Shown: positions 31,877 to 48,479 of the stretch, piece after piece
Layout: every line of letters starts with the position of its first letter
Numbering within the stretch: the stretch's first letter is position 1
Assembly: GCA_009772895.1 (NCBI GenBank)
Contig: WOUP01000023.1
Coordinates: 1-49,252 of the forward strand
Length of the DNA: 49,252 bases
Direction of reading: 5' to 3'
Origin: Puniceicoccaceae bacterium 5H
GTDB lineage: Bacteria > Verrucomicrobiota > Verrucomicrobiia > Opitutales > Oceanipulchritudinaceae
The notes under the pieces: model-generated
Told to the model about the DNA's origin: nothing
Database searches by the model: none
The model's input: only the letters and a program-made list of their open reading frames with translations
Program-made: the position numbers and the translations under genes

Positions 31877-34800
31877 CGGTCTATCCCCACGCGGGTGGGG
31901 AATACGCGGTGAGCGGCGAAGACATCGACCAAAAGATCGGTCCATCCCCGCGCGGGTGGGGAATACGCAGCACGGGCAGACAGGCAGCGCGAAATGCTCG
32001 GTCCATCCCCACGCGGGTGGGGAATACCTGCAGGAGACCCCCACAGGCGGCAGCTACGACGGTCCATCCCCACGCGGGTGGGGAATACTTCTGCAAACTG
32101 GGGGTCGAGCCCCGGCAATGCGGTCCATCCCCACGCGGGTGGGGAATACTCTATTGAGGGGGTTTTATTTTGCAAAGTAGGCGGTCCATCCCCAGCGGGT
32201 GGGGAATACTGGCTGACGGGTTCGCAGAGCTGCTTGCCTCTCGGTCCATCCCCACGCGGGTGGGGAATACGACCTGCCGGTCCTAAAGCAGGCTCGTAAG
32301 GGCGGTCCATCCCCACGCGGGTGGGGAATACTACATTCTATCGTTCCTATCCGTTGTTGGTTTCGGTCCATCCCCACGCGGGTGGGGAATACACACCCCT
32401 GTCGTGTGGGGTGTGGATCAGAGGCGGTCCATCCCCACGCGGGTGGGGAATACACCCTCAAGTCGAGGGACCTGGCCATCCTCAACGGTCCATCCCCACG
32501 CGGGTGGGGAATACGCTGTGGTAGGCGGTGAATTCGCGATAGGCGGCGGTCCATCCCCACGCGGGTGGGGAATACGTCACATATGACGAGTTCAAGAACA
32601 AGAACTACGGTCCATCCCCACGCGGGTGGGGAATACCTCATGGACGGCACAAAGGCGTTCGCCAAATGCGGTCCATCCCCACGCGGGTGGGGAATACCAT
32701 GGGTTTCATGTTTTCTTTGGTCATCACTGCGGTCCATCCCCACGCGGGTGGGGAATACTGTGAGGCATAGTCTGCTGTCTGCTTCCGTGCCGGTCCATCC
32801 CCACGCGGGTGGGGAATACGAAGCGGGGGACCGCGACGACGACAATATCCCCGGTCCATCCCCACGCGGGTGGGGAATACCCACGGGCCTGAGGCTGGGT
32901 CTGCGACATTCGCGGTCCATCCCCACGCGGGTGGGGAATACAAGGATGAGCCAAGGCCCGAAAATGCACTAGCCGGTCCATCCCCACGCGGGTGGGGAAT
33001 ACAGTAATCTCAACACCAATGCGTTCCGAGCTTTCGGTCCATCCCCACGCGGGTGGGGAATACTTTGTAAATTTCCTCCGGTGAAATTTTAACGCCGGTC
33101 CATCCCCACGCGGGTGGGGAATACTGGCACAATGGCAAAGTAGCGCTCTGCCTCTGCGGTCCATCCCCACGCGGGTGGGGAATACTTGAGCGCGGAGGCC
33201 ATGCTGCGGACCATGTGCGGTCCATCCCCACGCGGGTGGGGAATACATGCCAAGGGTGGAACATCATTGATTGAGAAACGGTCCATCCCCACGCGGGTGG
33301 GGAATACCTCTCAGCGTGGAGAATCATCTGGTAATGGCGCGGTCCATCCCCACGCGGGTGGGGAATACCACTCCCAGCACATACGGGTCGATTGGCAGGT
33401 CGGTCCATCCCCACGCGGGTGGGGAATACGGCTGATCATGATTCCGAGAGTTCGGTGAGTGCGGTCCATCCCCACGCGGGTGGGGAATACCAAGAGCAGG
33501 CGCTCGACTACCTGCTCAGCGACGGTCCATCCCCACGCGGGTGGGGAATACGAATCTGTTTGTTACCCTGTTAAAGTCTAACACGGTCCATCCCCACGCG
33601 GGTGGGGAATACGGATGCCATACGATCATCTCTGGATCATATGCCGGTCCATCCCCACGCGGGTGGGGAATACCTGCCGCTCTTTCTCAAGCGCCTCGAC
33701 GAATTCGGTCCATCCCCACGCGGGTGGGGAATACGCCTGTTGGATGCGCTCGGCTTTGACCTGTTCCGGTCCATCCCCACGCGGGTGGGGAATACTAAAG
33801 GGCGAACCGCACTATAACGACAAGCCGCGGTCCATCCCCACGCGGGTGGGGAATACAAACAATTCACTTCTTTGTTTGGCGCTAATTTCGGTCCATCCCC
33901 ACGCGGGTGGGGAATACACAGACGGCCCGCACATTGCTTCCGTGCGGGTCGGTCCATCCCCACGCGGGTGGGGAATACCCGGATCGCGCCAAGTCGGGCC
34001 AATTACGGACCGGTCCATCCCCACGCGGGTGGGGAATACGCCGGTACCATTGGAAAAAAAGCCCTCCAGAACGGTCCATCCCCACGCGGGTGGGGAATAC
34101 GCCTCATCTAGGGTTGCTTCGCCTCGATCATACGGTCCATCCCCACGCGGGTGGGGAATACAAATATTTTTCGAATTAGCTCTTTTACATTTACGGTCCA
34201 TCCCCACGCGGGTGGGGAATACATTATATGAATTTTAAAGATTTCTTTTTCATGCGGTCCATCCCCACGCGGGTGGGGAATACGGTCGTTGCGGTGGCAA
34301 AGTCGTATTCGAGCACGGTCCATCCCCACGCGGGTGGGGAATACAAACGTCCTCGCCATGCGCGAAGGCAACCAGGCGGTCCATCCCCACGCGGGTGGGG
34401 AATACCTGCATGTCCACTCCAAGATTCGTCCGCGCTACGGTCCATCCCCACGCGGGTGGGGAATACCTGCCAGCTGTCGATCCGAGGGCCGTAGACAGCG
34501 GTCCATCCCCACGCGGGTGGGGAATACCGCGCAACCCGAACCAGCACCCGGACAGCCAGCGGTCCATCCCCACGCGGGTGGGGAATACCGACCCAGGTCA
34601 GGCCGCCGTAATAGACACAGCGGTCCATCCCCACGCGGGTGGGGAATACCTATTCTGCCCTTAAAGTCCAGTCTTTCGTCGCGGTCCATCCCCACGCGGG
34701 TGGGGAATACATTGCAGTCGTGTCCGCAGTTGCTCCGATCGGCGGTCCATCCCCACGCGGGTGGGGAATACTGGGAAAGCGACCTCAGCGAGGACGTGGA

Positions 34801-35747
34801 AGACGGTCCATCCCCACGCGGGTGGGGAATACTGGACCCCGGGCAGGCCGCACAAATTACGTTGCGGTCCATCCCCACGCGGGTGGGGAATACTTTTGCG
34901 GGGGTTTTCTTGCTTTGGCATCAGGCGGTCCATCCCCACGCGGGTGGGGAATACAATACGGCTTCAAGTGGGCACCGAAGCAAGAGCGGTCCATCCCCAC
35001 GCGGGTGGGGAATACTTCTTCGCTGCGCGCAGCAGCTCTACCTGAGACGGTCCATCCCCACGCGGGTGGGGAATACCGCCTGCTTGGCGAGCGCCGCGTC
35101 GATGTCGGCGGTCCATCCCCACGCGGGTGGGGAATACCAATTTCACCACGGGCGCACCGGACGGCCGCGCGGTCCATCCCCACGCGGGTGGGGAATACCG
35201 CCTCGACGTTGAGATCCTGCACGGAGGCGACGGTCCATCCCCACGCGGGTGGGGAATACCTAGCTATCTGAGCAAAGACATGTCGCACCCTCGGTCCATC
35301 CCCACGCGGGTGGGGAATACTCTTCCGCCCGTTAAGAAAAATAGGGCATCTACGGTCCATCCCCACGCGGGTGGGGAATACCGCCTCCGCCTGGGGGCCA
35401 GTCCTTTGCGATGCGGTCCATCCCCACGCGGGTGGGGAATACGACCTCGACCTCTACGGCCCGCGCAGCCCGATCGGTCCATCCCCACGCGGGTGGGGAA
35501 TACATCTTGCCGGCGGTGATAGCGTTGCTTGCGATCGGTCCATCCCCACGCGGGTGGGGAATACGGCACGGCCACACCGGAAGCCTACGCCGGCCGCGGT
35601 CCATCCCCACGCGGGTGGGGAATACTATATCTCCTTCAGATTGGTTTGCTCTCCGGGCGGTCCATCCCCACGCGGGTGGGGAATACGACGCATGCCGGTC
35701 AAGACCATCGCCGAAGCTTGGTCCATCCCCACGCGGGTGGGGAATAC
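31877..35747 (-). CRISPR. CRISPR array 1, type I-E, 64 repeats
   Basis: A 29-bp repeat, on the plus strand CGGTCCATCCCCACGCGG then GTGGGGAATAC, alternates with 63 spacers of 32 bp (period 61). The spacing is constant except for one repeat near 32182 that lacks a base. In transcript orientation (minus strand) the repeat forms a 6-bp stem CCCCAC/GTGGGG with a CCGC loop. It leaves the 8-nt handle ATGGACCG, as in E. coli type I-E. Degenerate repeats at the left (31877, 31938 and 32182) and a conserved leader at the right show that new spacers enter at the right. The array abuts the dnaQ gene at the end of the cas operon. Confidence 0.98.
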
Positions 35748-35812
35748 ACTCGTTAAATCAAAGGCTTACAAAAGTGAAAAGGCCAAAATTCACGGTTTTG
35801 GTGGGGTAGGAG
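35748..35812 (-). promoter_or_regulatory. Leader of CRISPR array 1 with IHF-like site
   Basis: These 65 bp next to the first repeat align with the bases after array 2 (48480-48544), including CTCG, ATCAA, CTTA, AAGGC, an AAATT block and CGTTTTG...GGGGTA. AATCAAAGGCTTA (35756-35768) matches the IHF consensus WATCAANNNNTTR and starts 9 bp from the repeat. In E. coli type I-E, IHF bends the leader at such a site so that Cas1-Cas2 insert at the first repeat. The far part overlaps the last 23 bases of dnaQ. Confidence 0.8.
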
Positions 35813-36383
35813 GGCGCAGGTCTTGCAGGCGGTAATAGATGTCGCGGCAGGCGAGGGCGTCCTGGAGCGGGTCGTGGTGGCCGGCGATTTCGCGACCCAT
35901 GAGACCCGCGTAGAGCAGGCGCAAGGGGATGCGGCCGGACAAGCCCGTCAACTTGCGGACTTCTCGAGATTTGGACGCGAGGTGCAGGGTGCAGACCAGC
36001 TTCAGGTGTGGAGGCGGGAAGCGCGTATCCATTGCGAGGCGCAATCGTTCGCCCAGCATTACGTTGAGGTCGAACCGCAGGTTGTGGCCGATGATCTGCG
36101 TGGCCGGAGCGAGGTCGGCTTCCATTCGCTCCAGCGCCGCTGCAATCGGGATGCCCTCGGCCTCCAGCTGGTGCTGAGCGAGCCCCGTCAACAGCTGGAT
36201 ATTGCCCGGCACTTTGAAGCCGTCGGGGCGGATCAGCAGCCGTTGTTGCGAGCGGATGTTTCGCTCGGGGTCGACCAGCAGCCACGCCACGGCGATGACG
36301 CGGGGCCATTGCAGGAAGTTCTGGCGCGTTACTACGGGGGTGTGTGCGAGCCCGGTGGTTTCGGTATCAAGAAAGAGGTCCAC
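35790..36383 (-). CDS. DnaQ-like DEDDh 3'-5' exonuclease next to cas2
   Basis: This 197-residue protein has the three Exo motifs: FLDTETTG (4-11), IIGHNLRFDLNVM (about 97-109) and HHDPLQDALACRDIY (about 167-181) with the DEDDh histidine. The gene starts 6 bp after cas2 in the cas operon. In some type I-E systems a DnaQ domain is fused to Cas2 and trims prespacer ends, including the PAM, before integration. Here it is a separate protein, probably with the same job. Its 3' end runs into the leader of array 1. It could instead be an unrelated exonuclease, but its position argues otherwise. Confidence 0.88.
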   Translation of the reverse strand: MDLFLDTETTGLAHTPVVTRQNFLQWPRVIAVAWLLVDPERNIRSQQRLLIRPDGFKVPGNIQLLTGLAQHQLEAEGIPIAAALERMEADLAPATQIIGHNLRFDLNVMLGERLRLAMDTRFPPPHLKLVCTLHLASKSREVRKLTGLSGRIPLRLLYAGLMGREIAGHHDPLQDALACRDIYYRLQDLRPPTPPKP

Positions 36384-36389
36384 AGGCCA

Positions 36390-36680
36390 TCAGGCGTTGG
36401 CTTCAGGGATCAGTTGCAAGCCCGAGAGCTCGATCTCTTCACGACCGGAGCTGCCTTGCGGGCCGAAGCGCTCGATTACGTAGCCCTGGCTGTTGGGATG
36501 CGAGCTGATGCTGAGGAAACCGAACTCCGGCGGCGCGTTGCGCAGGATAAACTCGATCACCTTCTGGTGGGTCCGCACGTTGAGCGTGCCGACGAAGACG
36601 TTGGGGCGCGGCTCGATGAACCACCGCTTCAGGTGCCCCCGGATGGCGGGAGGCACGTCGTTGGCGACCAGCACCGTCAT
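36390..36680 (-). CDS. cas2e: Cas2e (CRISPR adaptation)
   Basis: The 96-residue protein starts MTVLVANDVPPAIRGHLKRW, with FVGTLNVRTHQKVIEFILRN and a C-terminal GYVIERFGPQG strand, all typical of the type I-E Cas2 subgroup. Cas2 dimers bridge two Cas1 dimers and hold the prespacer. It overlaps cas1 by 4 bases (ATGA) and is followed 6 bp later by dnaQ. Confidence 0.95.
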   Translation of the reverse strand: MTVLVANDVPPAIRGHLKRWFIEPRPNVFVGTLNVRTHQKVIEFILRNAPPEFGFLSISSHPNSQGYVIERFGPQGSSGREEIELSGLQLIPEANA

Positions 36681-37567
36681 GCTTCGGCGCGGGGTTGAAG
36701 CGGGTGCATTTCAGGTGCCGGGGCATCGTTGAGCCCGGCAAAGAGGGCCTTGAGGTCGTCCGGGCAACGGCGCAGCATGCGGGTATCTTCGACGCGCTGC
36801 TTGAAGAGCTTGCGCACCAGCGTGCCATCGTCTTGCGGATTCACAGCTATGGCCTCAAAGGCGGCGGGCCAGGCGGTCTCGTGTTTGTAGAGGTCGGCCG
36901 CGTCGTAGACAAAAGGCAGCGTCCCGGCCTGATGCACAAAGCCGAGCTGCGGGATGAAGCCCATAGAGCACACGACGGAGGCGATGAGCGCGTAGTGAGA
37001 AGCCGTGGCGGCCGAGAGGGCGCGGTTGATGTTGTCGGCAAGGTTCCAGTTGGAGGGGTTGTAGTTTCGCCCCTTCCAGGTCACGCCATACTGTTCGCCC
37101 AACTGGCTGTAGATCTCCTTGACCCGCTTGCCCTCCATCCCACGCAACTGCTTGATGGACACTCCTTCGGTGGGCACGTTGGGGAAGCGGTGGCGAAACA
37201 TGCGCCGGGCCACCTCGTTACGGTCGTGGGTCGAGGCCCAGGCGGCGGCATGCACCCGGGCCATCGAGTTGTCGTGATTGGGGGTGACGCCAAAGGCGTA
37301 AAAGCGCAGCCCCTCTTCGCCCATCCAGAAGATCGGGCAATTGCACTGCGCCGCCGCCTTGATCGCGGCATGCGTGACGGTCGTGCCTGGCCCGAGAATG
37401 ACCGCCGAGGCGGTCGCCACCGGGATCGGGCAGACCAGCCCGTCGCTCCCCACCCACTTGATGGCCGAGTCGTCGACTTCGAGGCGACCCCACTCCAGGT
37501 AGAGTGGGGTCCAGCGGTCGCGGGCTGGCGCGAGGGTATCGAGCGGAGGACGTTCGAAGAGGGCCAT
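36677..37567 (-). CDS. cas1e: Cas1e integrase
   Basis: This 296-residue type I-E Cas1 has DRWTPLYLEWGRLEVDDSA near the start, then KQLRGMEGKRVKEIY with a catalytic glutamate (about 140-150), PQLGFVHQAGTLPFVYDAAD with the catalytic histidine and aspartates (about 206-225), and DLYKHE. The protein integrates spacers into the leader-proximal repeat. It begins 3 bp after the cas5 stop and overlaps cas2. The sequence appears complete and active. Confidence 0.97.
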   Translation of the reverse strand: MALFERPPLDTLAPARDRWTPLYLEWGRLEVDDSAIKWVGSDGLVCPIPVATASAVILGPGTTVTHAAIKAAAQCNCPIFWMGEEGLRFYAFGVTPNHDNSMARVHAAAWASTHDRNEVARRMFRHRFPNVPTEGVSIKQLRGMEGKRVKEIYSQLGEQYGVTWKGRNYNPSNWNLADNINRALSAATASHYALIASVVCSMGFIPQLGFVHQAGTLPFVYDAADLYKHETAWPAAFEAIAVNPQDDGTLVRKLFKQRVEDTRMLRRCPDDLKALFAGLNDAPAPEMHPLQPRAEA

Positions 37568-37570
37568 GTT

Positions 37571-38296
37571 TTACCTTTGGGTGCGCCGTACAGGCCGCCC
37601 GACAAACGCGCGCTGGCCATACGAGAGCGGTTGGTCGTTCCAATACCAGACTCCGCCTTGCGCGGCGTCCTCACCGGAAGGCTCTTCGGTCCCGTCCTGC
37701 AGCGCCAGTTCGGGCGTGTCACTCGCTTGGCGGCGCTCGTTGACCGTCCGCAGCAGGCGGTCGAGGGCTTCGGTGCGCGAAGCCTCCGCCACGCAATAGA
37801 GCGGCGCCGAGGGCAAGCAGCACTTGCGCCCCAGCCACACGCCCCACACCGGGTCTGCCAACGCCCGGCCGACCGCTTCGAGCTGGTCCGCCGCCCCCTC
37901 GAGCACCACGGCAAAGCGCGCGTCGAGCAGGTAGGTGCGGTTAGTCAGCACGGCGTTGCTGATCGCTCCACCCGAGGCCTTGCGGGGGATCAGCAGCTTT
38001 TGCCACGGGTCCGTTCGGTCATAGCCAGCGCCCACCGTGTGGTAGTCGACTAGGCGCTGCATCCCGTAATCGGCCTGAGCCCCCAGCAGGTAGGCGGCGA
38101 TACGGAGCGCGCCCAGGCGAACCAAGGCGGCGGCCTCGTCGGCGCTTCCCTTGTCCAGCCCCATGGCTGCGGCGATCAGGCCCAGGAGCGCGCTTTTGGT
38201 CGGGAACCGCTCGGTGTCGCGATGTTGAAAGCGCGAGGATACGCCCCAGGCCTGCAAAGGCCCGTCGAGGTAGATGGCGAGGGCAGCCTCAGACAT
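37571..38296 (-). CDS. cas5e: Cas5e (CasD) Cascade subunit
   Basis: This 241-residue protein starts with YLDGPLQAWGVSSRFQHRDT, the conserved N-terminal Cas5 strand and glycine-rich loop, followed by PTKSALLGLIAAAMG and the C-terminal RRTQR. Cas5e binds the 5' handle of crRNA in Cascade. It overlaps the cas7 stop by 8 bases. In most I-E operons cas6e comes after cas5e, but here it is two genes upstream. Confidence 0.96.
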   Translation of the reverse strand: MSEAALAIYLDGPLQAWGVSSRFQHRDTERFPTKSALLGLIAAAMGLDKGSADEAAALVRLGALRIAAYLLGAQADYGMQRLVDYHTVGAGYDRTDPWQKLLIPRKASGGAISNAVLTNRTYLLDARFAVVLEGAADQLEAVGRALADPVWGVWLGRKCCLPSAPLYCVAEASRTEALDRLLRTVNERRQASDTPELALQDGTEEPSGEDAAQGGVWYWNDQPLSYGQRAFVGRPVRRTQR

Positions 38297-39311
38297 ACTT
38301 CACGAGGGTATCGAGCATGGCGGGCATGCCCAGTTCAGTCAGCCAAAGCTCCTCGCGGTATTCCACGCCCCAGAGCTTCTTCAGGTTTGCGAGCTCGGTT
38401 TTCATCTTCTCGGTCGAAGCTTTGCCATAGCCCTTGCCGTCCGGGGCCACTGGCTCCTCAAAGGCGTTGACCAGCTGGACGGGGTGGCCGCGCTCCTTGA
38501 CCGTCGCAAGCACCTCAAAGGGCCGCGTGGAGGCGTTCATGGAGTTTTTGCGCGCTCCGGGCACCGCTACCAGCACCGCCTCGATGAACGCCCGGAGGAT
38601 GGCGGCACGCTCTTCCTTGGGCAGCTCGCCGAGGTGGGAATGCGCGTTCAGCAAGTCGAGGTTGATCGCGACAAAGCGGTAGTAGGTCGAGGCGTTGAAT
38701 TCCAGGGTGCCGATCATGCCCGCGCCGGCGTCTTCCGTATCCACCTTGCCATCGTCGACGGCGGAAAAGTAGTCGATATCGTTGATGCTCTTGTGCGTGG
38801 AAAGGGCGTGCGAGACCATCGCCGCACCCTCGATGTTCAAGGTGGTATCATTGGCCACCATGCGCCCAAACAAAGCGATGTCGGCGGCGTCCGTGCGGGT
38901 GGCTTTCTTGATCGCCTTCTTGGGATCTTCACCGCCGGCCACCGCCTGTGCGATTTGGTTGACCTCGCCGGGCGAGAGATAGACGGCGGTCGTCACCTGT
39001 TCAGGCTTTTTGCTGTCCGTCTTCGAGAAGAGTAGGCAAAGCTCGTCGGCCTTCTTTTGCGCCTCTTCGGCGGGCAGTCCCGCATCCAACAGTGCATTGT
39101 TGAAGGGCTTTTTGATGAGGCGCGAGCGCACGCCTTGAAATCGAGGCGAAAGCTCCCGGGCTTCGAGCCGAGCCGCGCGCTTGAGGCACTGGCTGGAGAT
39201 GCGGGCGCGTTGCACGCCGCCGAAGAGGGCGGACTTGGGCGAACCGACGTCGTCCCGGTTCAGGCAGGAGACGGGGAAAGACTGCAGGATGTGAAGCTCA
39301 ATGTGTTTCAT
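38289..39311 (-). CDS. cas7e: Cas7e (CasC/Cse4) Cascade backbone
   Basis: This 340-residue protein has IELHILQSFPVSCLNRDDVG and SPKSALFGGVQRARISSQCL at the N terminus. The RAMP-like FLGGV/GGVQRARIS loop and the later YYRFVAINLDLL strand are typical of Cse4. Six copies form the Cascade backbone; each one displaces every sixth crRNA base, which matters for the target match described at 42002-42085. The gene is separated from cas6e by 34 bp and overlaps cas5e. Confidence 0.96.
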   Translation of the reverse strand: MKHIELHILQSFPVSCLNRDDVGSPKSALFGGVQRARISSQCLKRAARLEARELSPRFQGVRSRLIKKPFNNALLDAGLPAEEAQKKADELCLLFSKTDSKKPEQVTTAVYLSPGEVNQIAQAVAGGEDPKKAIKKATRTDAADIALFGRMVANDTTLNIEGAAMVSHALSTHKSINDIDYFSAVDDGKVDTEDAGAGMIGTLEFNASTYYRFVAINLDLLNAHSHLGELPKEERAAILRAFIEAVLVAVPGARKNSMNASTRPFEVLATVKERGHPVQLVNAFEEPVAPDGKGYGKASTEKMKTELANLKKLWGVEYREELWLTELGMPAMLDTLVKYV

Positions 39312-39345
39312 GGTACGAAAGGATATGTGGGTGAAATGAAAGAAT

Positions 39346-39981
39346 TCAGGCGGTAGGGACGAGGCAGAGCATGCCGAAGCCGAAGGCCTTGGCCGGGCCG
39401 ATCCCTTGACGGGCGGCCTGCAAAAATGCCTCCGGCTGGCGGACCTGGAGCGTGCCGCGAAACTCGACGGCGGCGTGGAGCCCGGCGGTCCCTTTTTTCA
39501 GGAAGATCTGGCGCGGGCGCGGCAGCGTCTGGAGCGTGCGGCAGTCGACTTCGAAGCCGTGTTGTGAGCCTTTGCGCTCAAGCCACGCCAACAGCTCTTT
39601 GCGGGAGGTGATTGGGGCCCGTCGGCTGTTCTTCAACGGCTCCCCATTGGCGCGCGCCCGCTTCTTCACCGTGGGATTGGCAACGAGCGAAAACCGGTAG
39701 CTGGAGCGTTGGAAAAACGCGTTCGGCACTTCCTTGCAGGCCCAGCCGTTTTCCGGGCACCAGCTGGGCCGCGTCGGCTGCACCGGGGCGAGCAGCAGCA
39801 GGCGAAAGCCGCCGTCGATCTCGTCCACGCGGGTCAGGAAGTTGCGCGCCTCTCCATCGCGCCCCGGGAAGGCTTTCCAGGCCTTCTGGTGCCACGCGTA
39901 GGAGTTGAGGATCCCCTGTTTATAGGCCAGCTCGTAGTCGATTTCGATCTTGGCGAGGTAGTTCATGCTCGGGGTGCTCAT
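39346..39981 (-). CDS. cas6e: Cas6e (CasE) crRNA endoribonuclease
   Basis: The 211-residue protein has the expected N-terminal AWHQKAWKAFPGRDGEARNF, aligning with the E. coli segment that carries catalytic His20 (here His31 from the first Met). The C-terminal glycine-rich loop reads GIGPAKAFGFGMLCLVP. It cuts each repeat 3' of the CCCCAC/GTGGGG stem and stays bound. The start overlaps the cse2 stop (ATGA); a second ATG five codons in is possible. Its position between cse2 and cas7 is unusual for type I-E. Confidence 0.95.
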   Translation of the reverse strand: MSTPSMNYLAKIEIDYELAYKQGILNSYAWHQKAWKAFPGRDGEARNFLTRVDEIDGGFRLLLLAPVQPTRPSWCPENGWACKEVPNAFFQRSSYRFSLVANPTVKKRARANGEPLKNSRRAPITSRKELLAWLERKGSQHGFEVDCRTLQTLPRPRQIFLKKGTAGLHAAVEFRGTLQVRQPEAFLQAARQGIGPAKAFGFGMLCLVPTA

Positions 39982-40502
39982 GATTGATTACCGTCTTCCT
40001 CCTTGGGAGCCTGCCAGAAATCGCGGGCCCAGCTCAGCTTCACCTGTTCGGCGCGCTGAAACCGCCAGTTCGCCAGATCGCGGGCAAGCTTCTCGTAATT
40101 CAGGGGGCTGCCCTCGACTCGAGAGAGCCGGGTGGCGAGGCGGTGGAGTTGATGGGCGACATCTTCGAGATCGCCGTCGGAACAGGCCAGCAAGCGTTGG
40201 AAGTGTCGTTCGCCCGCTTCGTAGCCAGCGGCACCTGCCCGCCCACCGGCGATTTTCAAGGCAGCCTGGCCGATGCTCAGGCCCTTGGCGCTGTGCTCGG
40301 GGTGTTGCGCGAAAACTGCGGCCACGATCATGTCGCTTTGGCGATTCAGGATCCCGAGGCGCCCAAAGTGCGGGTAGGCGTAGTGGCGCAGGGTGGGGCT
40401 CCAGTAGCGCCGCAGCTCGGCGATGGCGCCCCGATCTCTTTTGAGTTCTTCTAAACGATTTACGAACGTTTGGGTATGGGTAGGTGAAGTGTCGGTGCTC
40501 AT
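39978..40502 (-). CDS. cse2: Cse2 (CasB) Cascade small subunit
   Basis: Starting at ATG 40502, which overlaps the cse1 stop (ATGA), the protein has 174 residues, close to the usual length. It is all-helical with the family blocks RGAIAELRRYWSPTLRHYAY, YPHFGRLG and RHFQRLLACSDGDLEDVAHQ. Two copies form part of the Cascade belly and stabilise the R-loop. The same frame is open 48 codons further upstream inside cse1, which is a shadow. Confidence 0.95.
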   Translation of the reverse strand: MSTDTSPTHTQTFVNRLEELKRDRGAIAELRRYWSPTLRHYAYPHFGRLGILNRQSDMIVAAVFAQHPEHSAKGLSIGQAALKIAGGRAGAAGYEAGERHFQRLLACSDGDLEDVAHQLHRLATRLSRVEGSPLNYEKLARDLANWRFQRAEQVKLSWARDFWQAPKEEDGNQS

Positions 40503-41953
40503 GCGGCATCCTTTTTGGACGGTTGCTTCTTGGCCGGGCGAAAGCGGTTGAGGCTCTCCATATGGGCCTTCATCTGGCGCGGGGTTTTGGCCGGGCAGGT
40601 TCGCTGAAAAGCGGCGCGGGCCTGGGTGTAGGCGACGGCTCGCCATTCACTCCTCAGGCGCTCGGTGTCTGCCTTGTCTTCACTGGCCACGGCATCGAGC
40701 AGGAGCTGGAGATGGCCCTCCAATGCCGTCCAGTAGTAGCTCTGGGCCTGGGCGATGGGTGGGGAATCGTTCTTGAACGTCTCCCAGTAGTTTTTGACTG
40801 CTGCCCACAGCTTTTTGGAGCAAGCCTCAGCCTCCTCCATCCCCTTCTGGTAGAGCGTATTGCCTTCGGGGGTAAAGAGGGCGCGGGGCACCGTGCGGGT
40901 CGATTCGACGGTGTTGATGATCTTGGCCTTCAGGTCGGTCACGAGCGCGCCTGTCCACAGTTGCGTCCGCTTGAGCACATGCTCCCAGTGCACCTGCAGC
41001 GTAAGGGGTGCGTGGCTTTGGCCTGCCTGGACCACCGTGATCTCGTGCAGGTCGCGCCACAGCGCCCTTTCCAGGCGTGCAGAGAGTAATCGGCGCTCGG
41101 CCTTTTTCGGGACTGGCACCACGGTGGCGGACGGCTCGCGAATCTCCTCGTAGGCTGGGTATTGCAGGCTGTCCTTCTCCAGCCAAAAGCCGGTGCCATC
41201 GTCCTTGAGCCACAGGTTGCGGTGTCGCGGCACCAGTCGGCCCAGATAAGACTGGGTCGCCAGCGCCTTGCCCGCAGCCGTCTTGTCGTCGAGTTCCCAC
41301 AACGGCTGGCCCAGCCCCCCCTGCGGGCAGGCGATCTGAATCGAATCCAGATCCAGGCAGGCCAGCACGATGGCCTCGAGCAGGTCTTTGCCCACGAAGT
41401 AGGTGTGGACCATGTTGCTGTCGACGCACGGCCCTTTGCCTTTATAGCCAGCCCCGTACAGCGGGTAGAAGTTCTGGAAACTCAGCAGCGCGAGGGCAAG
41501 GTCGGCCGGGGCAAAGGCGCGGGCATTGGCGTCGTCGCCTGCCTGATCGAAGAGGGTTGCGTTGTTGCCGCTCGCGAGAGCCGGGAAGAGCTTGCTGGCG
41601 GGCACGCTTTCCTTCGATGTGGCCACCTTGCGCTGGAGGAAGCGCGGCCCCGGCCCAAACAGCTCGAAGTGGCGGGAGATTTCGGGCTGTTCCAGATAGG
41701 CCAGGACATTGCCGACCAAGCTTTCGCGCAAGGCCTCCCAGTCGGCCTCCGATTCGTCTTCTGGTGGGGGATTGGCTCGTTGGGTGAGACAAACGAGAAG
41801 GCGCATCAGCGAAACCCTCTCGGGGGGGCTGCAATCGAGGTCCTCAATCGCCTCCGACTGCAGAAAAGCCTCTTTGAGGCTGACACGTGTGCTCCGTCCA
41901 TCGAGCCAGCGGACGGGGATCCACGCATCGGTGAGCAAATTGAACTGGCTCAT
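40499..41953 (-). CDS. cse1: Cse1 (CasA/Cas8e) Cascade large subunit
   Basis: From ATG 41953 the protein has 484 residues (MSQFNLLTDAWIPVRWLDG). Blocks typical of Cse1 follow: VSLMRLLVCLTQRAN, FLQRKV and the LFDQAGDDANARAFAPADLA region, then the helical C terminus. Cse1 recognises the PAM and recruits Cas3. The open frame extends upstream to 42256, but that part lies opposite regulatory sequence and cas3 and lacks family similarity. The gene follows a 133-bp gap after cas3 that contains a predicted promoter and a crRNA-like RNA, so cse1 to dnaQ is probably a separately controlled unit. Confidence 0.95.
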   Translation of the reverse strand: MSQFNLLTDAWIPVRWLDGRSTRVSLKEAFLQSEAIEDLDCSPPERVSLMRLLVCLTQRANPPPEDESEADWEALRESLVGNVLAYLEQPEISRHFELFGPGPRFLQRKVATSKESVPASKLFPALASGNNATLFDQAGDDANARAFAPADLALALLSFQNFYPLYGAGYKGKGPCVDSNMVHTYFVGKDLLEAIVLACLDLDSIQIACPQGGLGQPLWELDDKTAAGKALATQSYLGRLVPRHRNLWLKDDGTGFWLEKDSLQYPAYEEIREPSATVVPVPKKAERRLLSARLERALWRDLHEITVVQAGQSHAPLTLQVHWEHVLKRTQLWTGALVTDLKAKIINTVESTRTVPRALFTPEGNTLYQKGMEEAEACSKKLWAAVKNYWETFKNDSPPIAQAQSYYWTALEGHLQLLLDAVASEDKADTERLRSEWRAVAYTQARAAFQRTCPAKTPRQMKAHMESLNRFRPAKKQPSKKDAA

Positions 41954-42001
41954 GCCTTGAGGATTAAGATGAGATTTTGGGCTGGTCAAATTTAAAAATC
42001 T

Positions 42002-42032
42002 AAGTTTATAAAAGGTGTATCTCTTTTGATAA
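42002..42032 (-). promoter_or_regulatory. Predicted cse1 promoter overlapping a pseudo-spacer target
   Basis: On the minus strand TTATCA (42027-42032) and TATAAA (42005-42010), 16 bp apart, resemble a sigma70 promoter; the ATG of cse1 lies about 45 bp beyond the expected start site. On the plus strand, AAG (42002-42004) followed by TTTATAAAAGG matches the pseudo-spacer at 42045 in 10 of the first 11 positions. Cascade bound there would cover the -10 box. The same AT-rich core (TATAAA, 42007-42012) could also drive the plus-strand RNA. Confidence 0.65.
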
Positions 42033-42085
42033 GGAGATGGACCGTTTATCAAAGGCGGATATTCCAAATCCCCACCTGCGTGGGG
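42015..42085 (+). ncRNA. crRNA-like regulatory RNA (CreR/CreA type), predicted
   Basis: Pseudo-repeat 1 (42015-42044) starts GTGT, forms a 6-bp stem CTCTTT/AAGGAG around TGAT, and ends with the exact array handle ATGGACCG. The pseudo-spacer starts at 42045 (TTTATCAAAGGCGGATATTC). Pseudo-repeat 2 carries TCCCCACCTGCGTGGGG (42069-42085), the full stem and loop of the array 2 repeat. Cas6e could cut after each stem to give a guide with a normal 5' handle and 3' hairpin. The pseudo-spacer partly matches an AAG-flanked site in the cse1 promoter (42005-42024). RNAs of this design autorepress cas genes in other type I systems. Transcription here is not shown. Confidence 0.7.
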
Positions 42086-42086
42086 C

Positions 42087-44681
42087 TCAAAACCAGGCAG
42101 GCTCTTCCGTGTCGTAGGCGGTGGGGCCTGCCTGCTCTTTTTTGAAGTAGTGCAGCCCAAGCTCGGGCGAGTAGGAGAAGTCGTGCTGGAGCGCTTCCGC
42201 CGCGGCGACCACCTCGCAGTCGAGGCTGTCGCGGGTGCAAAGAGCGAGGAAGGCACCGTCGATGTGCAGCCCCAGCCAAGGCAGCCCCGAGGCCGGTTCC
42301 GCGCCTTTGAGCAAATACCGCCTCACGCGGACGGCGTTGCGGTGGAGCGCCTTTGCGAGCTCGAAATCGAAGCGGCGGCCATGCTCGACCCTATGCTCCG
42401 AGCCATCAAGCAATACCACCTGCGTTTGGCCCGCCGGGAGCGATTTGACGCTGCGGGCGAGCACCAGTAGGGCTGCGTCGTCCTTGCCCCAGCGCGTGCG
42501 GCTCTCGTCGTCCTTCACGTCTCCACTGAAGCGCTGTTGAGCACTGGCCACGTTTCTCTGCTTTCGCCGGGCCTCACGGTATTCCTCAAGGAACGCCTTC
42601 GCCGCCGCGGGCAGGGTGTCGGGCTCCACAGACGATGCTTCCAGCCATTTCCTAATGTCCGACGGCAGCTGGATCTGATTCCACGCCTGGCAGATCCGCT
42701 GAGCCTGATACAGAGACCACGGAGGATAAATGTAGGCCGACGGGCCAAGAGCCTTTAAAGCCTCCTCTGGACTGGCCTCCCATGGCACCGTCGGCTGCAG
42801 CACGACCGCCCGTGCGGTTTCGAACTCGACCGGGCGGGCTCGGCGGTGGCGATGGAGGCGTCCCAGCCGCTGAATGATGAGGTCGATCGGTGCCAGATCC
42901 GTAAACAACAGGTCGGCGTCGATATCCAGCGACTGTTCCAGCACCTGCGTGCCCACGAGGATGCAGCCGCGCGGACGGTTCTCCGCCGATGGGCCCAGCT
43001 TGTCGGTCCACCGCTCTTCGTTGATTTCGCGTGCGAACTGTGGGAACCGGCTGTGCAGCAGCCCGCACTCGGTGCCCTCGCGGCAGCCGTTCTTGGCCAG
43101 GCGATAGGTCTCCTGAGCCAGTGCGACCGTGTTGCGGATGATCAGCACACAGGCACCTTGGTCGGCAGCCTCCACGGCATCACGCAGCCAGTCTTCCGCT
43201 GCCGGATCGGCCTGTTCAAGCACCACGGTCAACTGGCGGGGACTCGCGCCAGCCACCGGGATGGAGGTGGCCGTTGTTTCGCCAGAGCGCACGCACGTGA
43301 TCAGCGGATAGCTGTCGACGGGCGATTCCTCTTTTGCTCCTGCGGCCTGGACCAGTTCGGCCCGGCGCTGGCGCGTGAGCGTGGCCGACAGGATCACAAC
43401 GGTGCACCCGCATTGCAGCAGCTCCGACACCGCAAAATCGAGCAGCACGCTGGTGTAAGGGTCGTAGGAGTGCACCTCGTCGATCACGATCACCTTGCCG
43501 CTGAGGGCGAAGAAACGCAGGGCGGCGAACTTCACCGGTATGGCGGCGAGCAAGGCTTGATCGACGGTACCCACGCCAAACGGATGCAGCAGGTTCTTGC
43601 GGTTGTCCGAAAACCATTGGTGGGCGCTGAGCGTATTGTCGTCCTCCCGGGGCTGCACCACCGTGCTGCGGCGTTCGGAAAGCCAGGCCGAGCCGTGGAT
43701 GAGCGCCACGACCGAAGGCTCCGCCACCACTCGTTGCAGGAACCGCTCGACCCGCTCCTGAATGCGGTTGCTCGTCAACTGGGTGGGCAGCGCGAAATAG
43801 AGCCCCCGCTCTTCGCCCTCGCTCCAACGCGCATAGGCGAGGGCCAGCGCCGCCTCGGTTTTGCCTTCGCCCATCGGGGCTTCGACAATGTAGAGCCCTT
43901 GCGCATCCACCGACTCCAGCAGCGTTTGTTGAAGGGGACGCGGCTGAAACGGTTGCCGCACGGGGTCAGGCGAAAAGATTTCGGTAAATGACTGCCCGGC
44001 CTTTACGTCCCGCCGGGCCCAACCCAAGTCCGCCAGCGCCCGTTGCGCACGGTCGAGCGCCACCTCGCGGGTCAAGGCCTCCGGTTCGTTGAGCGGGAAC
44101 CATTCCGGGCTCGAACCAATCCAGTCCGACAGGATCATGAAGCCGGTAAACCAGTGGACGCGGGGGGACTTTGGCTTGATCGTCTCAGTCGGCAACGCCC
44201 CAAAATGCGCAACCAATTCGCGGATCAGTTGCTCCCGATGCGTCACAAATACCTCTTGGCCGCTGGGCGCCTCTTCATATGGTTGCAACCTGACGATCAG
44301 GTATTTACCATGGTGCCCGCCCACCGCCAGCAGCCACGCTGGCGCTTTGCCCTCTCGGCTGTAGTGGCTGAACAAGGCATCGAAGCCCGTGAGACTATGG
44401 TTGGGCTGGTAGGCCGCTGCTACTGTTCTGCAAAGTCCGCCATAAGTGCGCGCCCAAACAGGGCTCTTGAGTTGAAAACCCGGAGAGATCTTGCCCACAT
44501 CGTGGCACGCCACCAAGCCCACCGCACCGTCCGGCAGTTGCGCCCGGAGCGCGGGCGGCAGCCCGTCCCTTAAAACCTCCGCGACCGCCCCCACATTCAG
44601 GCAATGATCCCTCACCGAGAGGGCAGGTTGCCCCATCTCGTCAGTCTTGGCCCAGAAGTCTTGCAGGCTAATGTCTTTCAT
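42087..44681 (-). CDS. cas3: Cas3 nuclease-helicase (type I-E)
   Basis: From ATG 44681 the protein has 864 residues; ATG 44714 would add 11. The HD nuclease has RDHCLN (about 24-29) and LVACHDVGK (HD at about 60-61). The SF2 helicase has [14 protein letters not shown] (about 269), [11 protein letters not shown] (about 397), SATLTRQRR and the motif VI-like [10 protein letters not shown]. It is recruited by Cascade and shreds target DNA. The gene is first in the operon, and its stop codon touches the hairpin of the crRNA-like element. Array 2's distal end lies only 75 bp upstream of its start. Confidence 0.96.
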
Positions 44682-44756
44682 GCAGCGGCTGTAGGCAGAA
44701 TGGTTCAGCTTCAATTGGCTGTCTATCTAAATCTTGCGCAGATAGGTATAGTGTAG
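44682..44756 (-). promoter_or_regulatory. Short gap between array 2 and cas3
   Basis: The 75 bp upstream of the cas3 start contain an inverted repeat, CTATCT (44723-44728) and AGATAG (44740-44745), with an 11-base loop. It has no U-run on the minus strand. Any cas3 promoter must lie here or inside the array, or the array transcript may continue into cas3. Confidence 0.4.
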
Positions 44757-45700
44757 ATGGAGATCCCCACGCAGGTGGGGAACACCTCCGAGGCCTTCGC
44801 CTCATCGCCCTTCTTGCCGGTCCATCCCCACGCAGGTGGGGAACACGCGGTGGAAGGCGTTCTTTCTGGCACTCAAAGCGGTCCATCCCCACGCAGGTGG
44901 GGAACACGTTGAGGAGGTAGTCGCGCAATGTTGCTTGAGCGGTCCATCCCCACGCAGGTGGGGAACACACAATCCGCCCATTGATTAGCATTAGACTTAT
45001 CGGTCCATCCCCACGCAGGTGGGGAACACAGGATCGCCCACATGGTGGCGCTGTGCCACTCCGGTCCATCCCCACGCAGGTGGGGAACACGTTTCGCGGG
45101 CCTTCAGCTTGGCTTGCCAGCTCGGTCCATCCCCACGCAGGTGGGGAACACGCGTCGAGGTGCTCGGAATAAGCGCGCTCAGTCGGTCCATCCCCACGCA
45201 GGTGGGGAACACGCGTCGAGGTGCTCGGAATAAGCGCGCTCAGTCGGTCCATCCCCACGCAGGTGGGGAACACGCTGCCTGCGCCAATTTTAACCTGGCA
45301 ACGCGCGGTCCATCCCCACGCAGGTGGGGAACACGAATTAGGCATGAGTGTCGGCGTTGAATATTTCGGTCCATCCCCACGCAGGTGGGGAACACGGTGA
45401 CGCTGGTGGTGGGGGTGCTCATAAATCCGGTCCATCCCCACGCAGGTGGGGAACACTCTTCCGCCCGTTAAGAAAAATAGGGCATCTACGGTCCATCCCC
45501 ACGCAGGTGGGGAACACATTCCGGGTTCCCGCTTGCGGAGAAGGTCAGGCGGTCCATCCCCACGCAGGTGGGGAACACATTCCGGGTTCCTGCTGGCGGA
45601 GAAGGTCAGGCGGTCCATCCCCACGCAGGTGGGGAACACTTCTTGAAGGGTCGGGGAGTCGTGTCCCCGGCCGGTCCATCCCCACGCAGGTGGGGAACAC
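44757..45700 (-). CRISPR. CRISPR array 2, leader-distal part, 16 repeats
   Basis: The 29-bp repeats, on the plus strand CGGTCCATCCCCACGCAGG then TGGGGAACAC, differ from array 1 at two positions (A for G in the loop, C for T near the end). The period is 61 with 15 spacers of 32 bp. The leftmost repeat (44757-44785) has lost its first bases, as expected for the leader-distal end. One spacer is present twice in a row (45152 and 45213), two adjacent ones differ at two bases (45517 and 45578), and one (45456-45487) is identical to a spacer in array 1. Confidence 0.98.
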
Positions 45701-45717
45701 ACCTTCCGTTTGTGCGC

Positions 45718-45725
45718 AAAAAAAA
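45718..45725. repeat. Target-site duplication, left copy (ISL3)
   Basis: Eight A residues directly before the element's tip GGTTCATCGTCG are repeated after its other tip (47033-47040). ISL3 elements duplicate 8 bp. Confidence 0.88.
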
Positions 45726-47032
45726 GGTTCATCGTCGTATTCCGGGGAAGGCATATTTGATTTTGAGGAAGAAGTATTCGGTGTCTCGGTATCCGTATGC
45801 CATGCGTTTGATGACCTTGATCTTGTTGTTGATGCCTTCGAGGACGCTGGTGTTGAGGGGGAACCGAGCGGAAGCGAGGATCCCCCTGAGGTAAGGTTTG
45901 AGCTTGCGGGCGAAGGCGATGAGCGGCTTTAGGCCGCTCTGTTGAGCCATGCGCCACCAGGCTCGCCAGAGCCGGTAGGCGCTCCAGGGTGAGGGGCAAC
46001 GCCAGAGTTCCTTGAGCTGATCTTTAAGGATATAGACTTGGGCCAGCGGGGCGTTGAGGCTCATGAGGGCATCGAGGCGAGTCGCCTGATCGTCGCTGAG
46101 GTTGTCGCGGTTTCTGAGCAGCAGCCAGCGGCTGCGCTTGACGGCCTGGCGCGCCGGCTTGTCCTCGCGCAGGGCGTTGGCTTGGTCGACCCGCACGCGG
46201 TCGATGACCTCGCGGCCGTATTTGGCGACGATGTGAAAGAGGTCGTAAACGACCTCGGCATTGGGGCAGTGTGCTTTGACCTCGAGGTCAAAGGCGCTGT
46301 TCTGGTCCATCGCCACGGCTTCGATCTGGGCGCAGTGCGCGCCCAGTTCCTGAAAGAAGGGCCGCACCGCTTCGCGGCTGCGCCCTTCGCCGATCCAGAG
46401 CACCTGGCGCGTTTCGGCGTCGGCAATGACGGAGGCGTAGCGGTGCCCCTTGTGCAGCGCAAACTCATCCATCACCAGCCGCCTCAGGCTGCGGTAATCC
46501 AGCGGCGGCAGCTCGCGTTGCAGGCGTGCCTTGTCGATGCGTTTGACCGTGTGCCACGACAGCCCGAGGTGCCGCGCCACGTGCTGGATCGGCAGGACTC
46601 GGCACAGCGCTTCCACCTGCCGCACCAGGCGGTGCGCCAGGCGTTGGTGCTCGCCCAGCCAGGCGATCCGTTCCCGCTTCACTCCGCAGCGCGGGCAGCA
46701 AACCCGCCGCACCGGCAGCTCCAGCCAGAGACGCCGGTCCAGCAGATCGAGGTCGCGCACCCGCCTCCACTGCGTTTCATGCACCTGCGGCGCTAACGCG
46801 CCGCAGCCTCCGCAAGCCCCGTCCCCCGTCGCGACCAACCGAATCCGCAGCGCACCCTCTCCAAGCTCCTGCCACGAATCTATCTTATAGCCTTCCCAAA
46901 AGAGCTCCCAGAGGTTACTTTGCATCTCTCGAAGCGGTTGTTGTTGGTTTTGAGTTCGTTTTCACACCTGAACCTTACCAGCAACGGCCGCTTCTTGGTA
47001 GATACACCTTCCCGCTCTTCGACGAAGAACCA
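45726..47032 (-). mobile_element. ISL3-family element inserted in a CRISPR spacer (1307 bp)
   Basis: The tips GGTTCATCGTCG (left) and GGTTCTTCGTCG (right, read inward) continue as a 25-bp imperfect inverted repeat ending in GGGAAGG. The element contains one intact transposase gene and is flanked by A8 direct repeats. Without it and one A8 copy, the flanks 45701-45725 and 47041-47047 join to a spacer of exactly 32 bp. Confidence 0.95.
45729..46925 (-). CDS. ISL3-family transposase
   Basis: This 398-residue protein has an N-terminal zinc-ribbon ([10 protein letters not shown] and [12 protein letters not shown], about 38-91) and a helix-turn-helix ([19 protein letters not shown]). The DDE-type core has [18 protein letters not shown] (about 146), [13 protein letters not shown] (about 198) and a C-terminal [20 protein letters not shown] block with the glutamate, as expected for ISL3. 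The stop codon lies within the left inverted repeat. The frame is intact, so the element could still move. Confidence 0.95.
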
Positions 47033-47040
47033 AAAAAAAG
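47033..47040. repeat. Target-site duplication, right copy (ISL3)
   Basis: A8 follows the right tip and is followed by GCGCCCC, the remaining 7 bases of the split spacer, and then by the next repeat at 47048. Confidence 0.88.
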
Positions 47041-47047
47041 CGCCCCC

Positions 47048-48479
47048 GGTCCATCCCCACGCAGGTGGGGAACACGTAGCTCATGACTCCTGAATGTCCA
47101 GACCGAGCGGTCCATCCCCACGCAGGTGGGGAACACGGTAAGGATCCAGCCCCGCTGCACGTCGACCTCGGTCCATCCCCACGCAGGTGGGGAACACTGA
47201 GCATGGGCGATGATTTGGCGGCACTGCCACGGTCCATCCCCACGCAGGTGGGGAACACTGGCACGACACCTACCAGGCGGGAGACGTTTACGGTCCATCC
47301 CCACGCAGGTGGGGAACACCTACACCTCGAGCGACGCCACCCCAGACACTCCGGTCCATCCCCACGCAGGTGGGGAACACGGATACATACCAGTTTCGTC
47401 GTTATACTCATACGGTCCATCCCCACGCAGGTGGGGAACACCAAGCCGCCGCGATGGATGCCGTTGGCCAACGCGGTCCATCCCCACGCAGGTGGGGAAC
47501 ACGGCATTCGTTGAATAGCAAAGGCTGAAGGTGTCGGTCCATCCCCACGCAGGTGGGGAACACGTCGGTCGCGGGCAGCGGCGAGGGCTCGATCCCGGTC
47601 CATCCCCACGCAGGTGGGGAACACGGTGTCGTCGTTATATTGGGGGTGTTTGTTGGCGGTCCATCCCCACGCAGGTGGGGAACACGCTCAAGGTTGGCTG
47701 TGATGTCTCTAGTGCGTCGGTCCATCCCCACGCAGGTGGGGAACACGGGATCGAGCCCTTCGCCACGTATTCGATTAGCGGTCCATCCCCACGCAGGTGG
47801 GGAACACGCACGCTACCGCCGGCAAAGGGGTCAAAGACGCGGTCCATCCCCACGCAGGTGGGGAACACGCTGGATGAGATTGCGCTGACGCTCGCCTAAA
47901 CGGTCCATCCCCACGCAGGTGGGGAACACCCCCCCCACGCCTTCGACGGAGGCGAAGAAGGGCGGTCCATCCCCACGCAGGTGGGGAACACAGTTTTCCC
48001 AAGGCGGTCTGCAGCTAAAAACGCGGTCCATCCCCACGCAGGTGGGGAACACAGTTTTCCCAAGGCGGTCTGCAGCTAAAAACGCGGTCCATCCCCACGC
48101 AGGTGGGGAACACCGAAATTTGGTGCTCGAAACACTAGTGCCCGGCGGTCCATCCCCACGCAGGTGGGGAACACTAATCGGACAGCTCGAAAGCGAAGTT
48201 GCTGAACGGTCCATCCCCACGCAGGTGGGGAACACTGTCAGCAGGTTGAGAACGTAGCGGTCATGCTCGGTCCATCCCCACGCAGGTGGGGAACACATCT
48301 CGTCCACCTCTTCACCTGTCGATCCCAGCGGTCCATCCCCACGCAGGTGGGGAACACTGAGCAAGGCGGCAGGGGTGCGCACCGGGTTCCGGTCCATCCC
48401 CACGCAGGTGGGGAACACAGGTGGTTCTTGCGCTGACCAGGCTTGAGCGGCGGTCCATCCCCACGCAGGTGGGGAACAC
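47048..48479 (-). CRISPR. CRISPR array 2, leader-proximal part, 24 repeats
   Basis: This continues array 2 with the same repeat (GCAGG loop, GAACAC end) and a 61-bp period. With the distal part it makes 40 repeats and 39 spacers, one of them split. Two adjacent spacers are identical (47992-48023 and 48053-48084, starting AGTTTTCCCAAGGCG). The rightmost repeat borders a leader homologous to that of array 1, so transcription and acquisition run from the right. Confidence 0.98.

What the first reader, a model, noticed from the sequence alone, without database searches (positions are those of the whole stretch)
42002..42085. A crRNA-like regulatory RNA between cas3 and cse1 that appears to target the cse1 promoter
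Seen: on the plus strand a degenerate repeat (GTGT start, 6-bp stem with 4-nt loop, perfect ATGGACCG handle) is followed by a pseudo-spacer and then by an intact repeat stem TCCCCACCTGCGTGGGG. The pseudo-spacer matches 42005-42024 at positions 1-5, 7-11, 13, 15, 16 and 18. That site is preceded by AAG, the classic type I-E PAM. Position 6 is the only mismatch in the first 11, and position 12 is the next; both are bases that Cas7 flips out, so they need not pair. The site covers the predicted -10 box of cse1. Known: CreR/CreA RNAs use this pseudo-repeat, pseudo-spacer, pseudo-repeat plan to send Cascade, without Cas3 cleavage, to promoters. Inferred: this is Cascade autorepression, which would be relieved when crRNAs saturate Cascade or an anti-CRISPR blocks it.
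Basis: partly seen in the sequence, partly recalled or inferred. Interest (0 to 1): 0.92.

Follow-up and report, generated by a model that had tools for sequence, protein, structure and literature searches.

The report
CRISPR guide that restrains its operon
Between two CRISPR genes sits a tiny, decayed CRISPR unit that probably makes a guide RNA sending the defence complex back to its own operon to turn it down; this kind of self-regulation is already known, and related bacteria carry matching versions with different guides.

Summary
At 42002-42085 (+) lie an AAG PAM, a target, a degenerate repeat keeping the ATGGACCG handle, a 20-nt pseudo-spacer and an intact repeat stem. AAG plus the full 10-nt seed arose in 2 of 20,000 gap shuffles and is the genome's only such site at up to 1 mismatch.

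It is not a one-off: five other verrucomicrobial type I-E loci carry a mini-CRISPR in the same place and orientation, each with its own guide. Own-gap seed scores are 10,10,10,10,9,8 of 10; swapped guides average 4.3. Pairing skips positions 6 and 12. A strong antisense terminator follows the element.

Best reading: a CreR guide repressing cse1/Cascade expression, a known kind (types I-B, I-E, V-A; PMC13131331, one passage). Open or against: the promoter is not statistically supported; there is no RNA evidence; the sister species (Cse1 97% identical) lacks the element, probably by loss, since the terminator remains; presence is patchy. Two relatives carry a tRNA-like sequence ahead of cse1, so toxin-guarding variants may exist.

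The parts
42002..42004 (+). AAG PAM of the target
   Evidence: the best-scoring partner is AAG-flanked in the five strongest loci when all PAMs (four loci) or AAG sites are searched
42005..42024 (+). Target (protospacer) of the pseudo-spacer; matches at 1-5, 7-11, 13, 15, 16, 18
   Evidence: unique in the genome at up to 1 mismatch
42015..42044 (+). PsiR1: degenerate repeat with hairpin and intact 8-nt handle 42037-42044
42045..42064 (+). Pseudo-spacer (20 nt), the guide
42065..42093 (+). PsiR2: repeat-like, stem 42069-42085 identical to the repeat of the cas3-side array, last 8 nt degenerate (2 of 8 match)
42094..42142 (+). Intrinsic-terminator-like hairpin and T-run ending the guide transcript, inside the antisense of the cas3 3' end
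   Evidence: fold -32.7 kcal/mol, z -5.35, 0 of 200 shuffles as good
42003..42032 (-). Candidate cse1 promoter: -35-like TTATCA 42027-42032, -10-like TATAAA 42005-42010 or TAAACT 42003-42008
   Evidence: PWM, shuffle p 0.25; no hit: weak
41983..42012 (+). Candidate guide promoter: -35-like TGGTCA 41983-41988, -10-like TATAAA 42007-42012 (palindrome TTTATAAA shared with the cse1 -10)
   Evidence: PWM, shuffle p 0.5: weak
40499..41953 (-). cse1 (cas8e), the regulated gene
   Evidence: TIGR02547 133.8 bits, cut-off 70.05
42087..44714 (-). cas3
   Evidence: TIGR01587 and TIGR01596 above cut-off
36677..40646 (-). cse2, cas6e, cas7, cas5, cas1: rest of Cascade and adaptation genes
   Evidence: NCBIfam matches above cut-off
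44817..48474 (-). Cas3-side CRISPR array, 39 exact repeats GTGTTCCCCACCTGCGTGGGGATGGACCG, split by an ISL3 insertion

Best explanation
The element is a creR gene. It is transcribed from the + strand (inferred), cut by Cas6e at its two hairpins into a 49-nt crRNA-like RNA (8-nt handle, 20-nt guide, 21-nt 3' hairpin; inferred from sequence) and loaded into Cascade (inferred). Cascade is led to the AAG-flanked site about 50 bp upstream of cse1 (guide-target match shown) and there blocks transcription of cse1 and the rest of the Cascade operon (inferred). Pairing ends near position 18, with gaps at 6, 12, 14 and 17, below the 18-25 bp that E. coli type I-E needs for interference or priming, so Cas3 should not cut. 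Spare Cascade thereby sets its own level, and competition from ordinary crRNAs would relieve the block (inferred from published CreR).
For: Exact anatomy and low chance. Five other loci with different guides in the same position and orientation; own-gap seed scores 10,10,10,10,9,8 against 2-8, mean 4.3, in 30 swapped pairs. Outside the searched positions, 13-17 match in 20 of 25 cells but 6 and 12 in 2 of 10 (p 0.0017, five loci), as expected for Cascade pairing. Strong same-strand terminator, seen in 3 of 6 element-bearing loci and 0 of 20 chosen others besides the sister genome. PsiR1 keeps and PsiR2 loses the handle in all six, as published for CreTA (PMC9458426 section 13). AAG plus a short seed suffices for E. 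coli Cascade binding, >18 bp needed for interference (PMC5904413 abstract; section 19).
Against: No transcript data. Promoter not supported beyond weak consensus. The sister species lacks element, target and PAM. The element needs six changes on a tree where six is the most possible, so it is not phylogenetically clustered. In E. coli, weak off-target Cascade binding left nearby genes unchanged (PMC5904413 section 9). The minimum-energy fold of the element ties part of the handle and guide into a third hairpin. In the relatives the target lies farther from cse1, and no promoter there is better than shuffles on the cse1 strand.
Confidence: 0.72

Rival explanations
1. Same guide and target, but bound Cascade acts mainly as a roadblock to transcripts reading through from cas3 into cse1, not on a dedicated cse1 promoter.
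For: No promoter is better than shuffles; cas3 and cse1 are co-directional; Cascade roadblocks are known (PMC5904413 section 9).
Against: Both best -10 candidates on the cse1 strand fall inside the target in the window.
Confidence: 0.12
2. A vestigial element: once regulatory, now decaying and without effect in this strain.
For: Lost in the sister species, patchy on the tree, PsiR1 stem much changed from the repeat.
Against: Seed 10/10, PAM, handle, hairpin and terminator all intact; repeat degeneration is normal for this class (PMC9458426 abstract).
Confidence: 0.08
3. A CreTA addiction module: the guide is an antitoxin that keeps a small toxic RNA between target and cse1 silent.
For: The type I-F CreTA of Acinetobacter sits in the same cas3-cas8 gap with a 20-nt guide (PMC10097628 passages and section 6); two relatives have a tRNA-like sequence there.
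Against: In the window only about 50 nt separate target and cse1, with no ATG before the cse1 start on that strand, no tRNA (L007) and no Rfam family above threshold in 41800-42300.
Confidence: 0.06
4. Chance or array debris: a stray repeat fragment whose spacer happens to resemble nearby DNA.
For: PsiR2 equals the stem of the nearby array, so it could be a copied fragment.
Against: 2 of 20,000 shuffles, unique site, six loci with guide-target agreement against a swap control.
Confidence: 0.02

Closest known systems
CreR, cas-regulating RNA (Liu et al. 2023, Cell Host Microbe; not held; seen through one passage of PMC13131331, and passages of PMC12737573)
   Same: crRNA-like gene within the cas locus, partial complementarity to DNA upstream of cas genes, no toxin gene beside it; type I-E is among the reported types.
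   Different: Found here in Verrucomicrobiota in the cas3-cse1 gap, antisense; target overlaps PsiR1 itself; repression untested here. I could not compare with the published I-E case.
CreTA (CreA antitoxin guide), type I-F Acinetobacter and type I-B haloarchaea (PMC10097628, PMC8501985, PMC9458426; passages and sections)
   Same: PsiR1-PsiS-PsiR2 plan, seed 1-5 and 7-11, PAM-flanked nearby target; in Acinetobacter the same cas3-cas8 gap and a 20-nt guide; PsiR1 keeps and PsiR2 loses the handle.
   Different: No room or sign of a toxin gene in the window; the next gene downstream of the target is cse1.
Standalone-repeat mini-arrays surveyed in 'Widespread CRISPR-derived RNA regulatory elements' (NAR 2023; recalled, not held)
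   Same: As recalled: two repeat-like sequences with a spacer partly matching promoter regions of cas genes, often cas8.
   Different: I could not check whether verrucomicrobial I-E loci were listed there.

Membership tests
CreR | crRNA-like gene with two repeat-like sequences around a short guide, inside a cas locus and outside arrays | tested here: met
CreR | PsiR1 keeps handle and hairpin, PsiR2 keeps the stem (processable by the host Cas6) | tested here: met
   Sequence and fold only; processing itself not testable here
CreR | PAM-flanked partial complementarity (seed 1-5, 7-11) to DNA upstream of a cas gene | tested here: met
   six loci (two with 9 and 8 of 10)
CreR | The target is a cas promoter | tested here: inconclusive
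   Weak consensus only; not above shuffles
CreR | Guide RNA is made and Cascade represses the cas gene | not testable with these tools
   Needs small-RNA sequencing and a reporter
CreR | Not coupled to a toxin gene | tested here: met
   About 50 nt between target and cse1, no ATG before cse1, no tRNA, no Rfam family above threshold; an unknown tiny RNA cannot be excluded
CreTA | A toxin RNA gene (creT) transcribed from the targeted promoter | tested here: not met
   None found in the window; a tRNA-like candidate exists in two relatives
CreTA | PsiR1 more diverged except the handle, PsiR2 close to the repeat but handle lost | tested here: met
   against PMC9458426 section 13; probably shared with CreR, so not decisive

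The most novel reading that the evidence does not exclude
The window holds a maximally compact, self-limiting version: one palindromic TTTATAAA (42005-42012) serves as -10 of both the guide and cse1 and as the guide's seed target, so guide-loaded Cascade shuts off cse1 and its own guide together; the 20-nt guide (32 minus 12, two Cas7 steps) builds a shortened Cascade that cannot fire Cas3. Relatives with a tRNA-like sequence in the regulated leader would be a toxin-bearing version of the same module.
Probability: 0.25. Interest if true: 0.62.

Novelty: new member of a known kind. Interest (0 to 1): 0.47.

Why it matters
If true, it gives six verrucomicrobial type I-E loci with different guides and matching targets, from which the pairing rule for repression without cutting can be read, and a pair of near-identical cas operons (window genome and its sister) that differ by the presence of the guide. 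Haloferula luteola, a named strain, carries one of the six and could be used for tests.

Tried and rejected
Considered and ranked low: chance or array debris, CreTA for the window itself, a vestigial element. Phage-borne copies: two exact patterns in viral contigs gave 0 stretches each. A genome-contig search with the single Cse1 sequence found no relatives; a Cas3 alignment then gave 179 relatives of which the best 80 were kept. L049, L067 and L116 have long cas3-cse1 gaps without a mini-array found by eye or simple search. The strict scan of 1,727,102 bases found the signature at three distinct loci (window, G261, G444; the last two listed twice because each genome came from two collections), all in the cas3-cse1 gap; it missed G437 (probably the stem rule), SZUA-55 and G271 (seed below 10). 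In its controls, 10 of 11 other PAMs gave 0 hits and one (CCC) gave 47, which I put down to array repeats without checking. Terminators were tested in 27 chosen loci, not all. Tree: duplicates, listed partial rows and Cse1 scores under 250 were dropped, 72 proteins taken and 65 kept after removing identical ones. The pseudo-spacers used were picked by eye. The tRNA listing was cut off, so it does not settle how the tRNA-like sequences score among all tRNAs of those genomes.

Full report
Setting. The window is contig 29 of a 4.1-Mb genome. Named Cas3 relatives closest to it are mostly Verrucomicrobiota. On the minus strand it carries a type I-E operon: cas3 42087-44714, cse1 40499-41953, cse2, cas6e, cas7, cas5 and cas1, each with an NCBIfam model above its cut-off. 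Two arrays have nearly the same repeat: 60 exact copies of GTATTCCCCACCCGCGTGGGGATGGACCG at 32.0-35.7 kb and 39 of GTGTTCCCCACCTGCGTGGGGATGGACCG at 44.8-48.5 kb.

The observation. The 133-bp gap between cas3 and cse1 holds, on the opposite strand, AAG (42002-42004), a target, PsiR1 (42015-42044) with intact handle, a 20-nt pseudo-spacer (42045-42064) and PsiR2, whose 17-nt stem equals that of the cas3-side array. The claimed match pattern is exact. AAG with all ten seed positions arose in 2 of 20,000 shuffles of the gap. The genome holds one such site at up to one mismatch. The 99 array spacers reach at most 7 of 10 at AAG sites in the gap. After PsiR2 comes a strong hairpin with a T-run on the same strand, inside the cas3 3' end.

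Relatives. Of 106 distinct loci with both gene ends placed, from several phyla, 50 have cas3 and cse1 overlapping, 43 lie within 40 bp, 1 has 85 bp and 12 have 100 bp or more (from; ends estimated from profile matches). Nine of the 12 wide gaps hold a mini-CRISPR: six verrucomicrobial ones, antisense and directly after cas3 (window; G437 = L055; G261 = L056; G444 = Haloferula luteola, L059; SZUA-55, L078; G271 = L094), and three proteobacterial ones in sense orientation (L092, L119, L121). Three show none by eye or simple search (L049, L067, L116). Gaps of 40 bp or less are too short to hold the element.

Guide-target agreement. In the six, the pseudo-spacers differ, yet each finds a strong AAG-flanked partner in its own gap: 10, 10, 10, 10, 9 and 8 of 10 seed positions. 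Thirty swapped pairs gave 2 to 8, mean 4.3. Letter-shuffled guides reached 10 in 0 of 12,000 trials, 2,000 per locus; for G271, 56 of 2,000 reached its score of 8, so that case is weak. In the window, G437, G261 and G444 a search with any PAM also put the AAG site first. Outside the searched positions, 13-17 match in 20 of 25 cells but 6 and 12 in 2 of 10 among the five stronger loci (p 0.0017), and 18-20 in 4 of 15. This is the pairing expected of a Cascade guide; published CreA uses exactly seed positions 1-5 and 7-11 (PMC8501985 passages). It ends short of the 18-25 bp reported for E. coli interference and priming (PMC5904413, abstract and section 19).

Pattern of decay. In all six, PsiR1 keeps a handle and PsiR2 loses it, as described for CreTA (PMC9458426 section 13). 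Pseudo-spacers are 20, 31, 32, 20, 33 and 33 nt. The Acinetobacter CreA guide is also 20 nt (PMC10097628 passage). A shortened I-F1 R-loop does not trigger Cas2/3 (PMC7296934 abstract), though that abstract calls I-E less strict.

The sister species. G001 (Cse1 97% identical) has a 17-bp gap, with no PAM, target or mini-CRISPR; its cse1 starts with GTG. It keeps TGGGG of the PsiR2 stem and the whole antisense terminator, in a 90-bp stretch identical up to the cas3 stop; runs of 83 and 82 bp occur elsewhere in cas3, so the length alone is not striking. Such terminators occur in 3 of 6 element-bearing loci and in 0 of 20 chosen others besides G001. I infer a deletion in G001. G001 also has none of the CCTGCG-type repeats: 0 of 43 copies found. 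On a 65-row Cse1 tree the element needs six changes for six rows; 500 of 500 shuffles do as well: it is gained or lost easily. This counts against an essential role.

Mechanism. Shown: a guide-like gene and a matching PAM-flanked site upstream of cse1. Inferred: transcription, processing, Cascade loading, repression. The promoter claim is the weakest link: no sigma-70 hit, and PWM scores no better than shuffles (p 0.25 for cse1, 0.5 for the guide), although the best -10 candidates on both strands fall in or beside the palindrome TTTATAAA inside the target. A roadblock to read-through from cas3 would serve as well. E. coli data caution that weak Cascade binding alone left nearby genes unchanged (PMC5904413 section 9).

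What is known. A review states that CreRs mediate autorepression in types I-B, I-E and V-A through partial promoter complementarity (PMC13131331, one passage); another describes CreR as generally not coupled with toxin genes (PMC12737573 passages). The primary CreR paper and a survey of CRISPR-derived regulatory RNAs were not held and are cited from recall or through those reviews. So this is a new member of a known kind. A search joining Verrucomicrobia, CreA, CreR and related words matched 565 papers; none of the 15 listed reports, by title and start of abstract, such an element there. That is no proof of absence from print.

A side branch. Between target and cse1, G261 has a sequence that ARAGORN calls tRNA-Gln but whose best Rfam match is tmRNA at 20.6 bits, below that family's cut-off; its minimum-energy fold is not a cloverleaf. 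Haloferula luteola has one whose minimum-energy fold is tRNA-like, with a best Rfam match of 21.5 bits, also below threshold, and no ARAGORN call. These could be decayed tRNA genes or tRNA-mimicking RNAs of a CreTA-like variant.

Noticed in passing
L056:12780-12857 and L059:12872-12941 (leaders of cse1 in G261 and Haloferula luteola): tRNA-like sequences between the guide's target and cse1: ARAGORN tRNA-Gln in G261, tRNA-like fold in Haloferula luteola, both weak in Rfam. Possible CreT-like RNAs or decayed tRNA genes.
   Followed up: partly
L005 (sister genome G001), about 8285-8375: The element is absent, but its antisense terminator and the last TGGGG of PsiR2 remain: a probable natural deletion.
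   Followed up: yes
L092, L119, L121 (proteobacterial I-E loci), cas3-cse1 gap: Mini-arrays in sense orientation with a GTGTTTC-type handle; in L119 and L121 an AAA-flanked 9/10 seed match lies nearby, in L092 none of 8 or more.
   Followed up: partly
45729-46925: An ISL3-family transposase gene splits the cas3-side CRISPR array.
   Followed up: no
45122-45274 and 45488-45640: Neighbouring spacers are duplicated: one pair is identical, another pair differs at two positions, as if a spacer was copied and then changed.
   Followed up: no
31877-35743 and 44817-48474: Two arrays with slightly different repeats; PsiR2 matches the cas3-side type, and the sister genome has 0 of 43 copies of that type.
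   Followed up: partly
35790-36383: A DEDDh-like 3'-5' exonuclease gene at the cas1 end of the operon (weak NCBIfam hits below cut-off).
   Followed up: no
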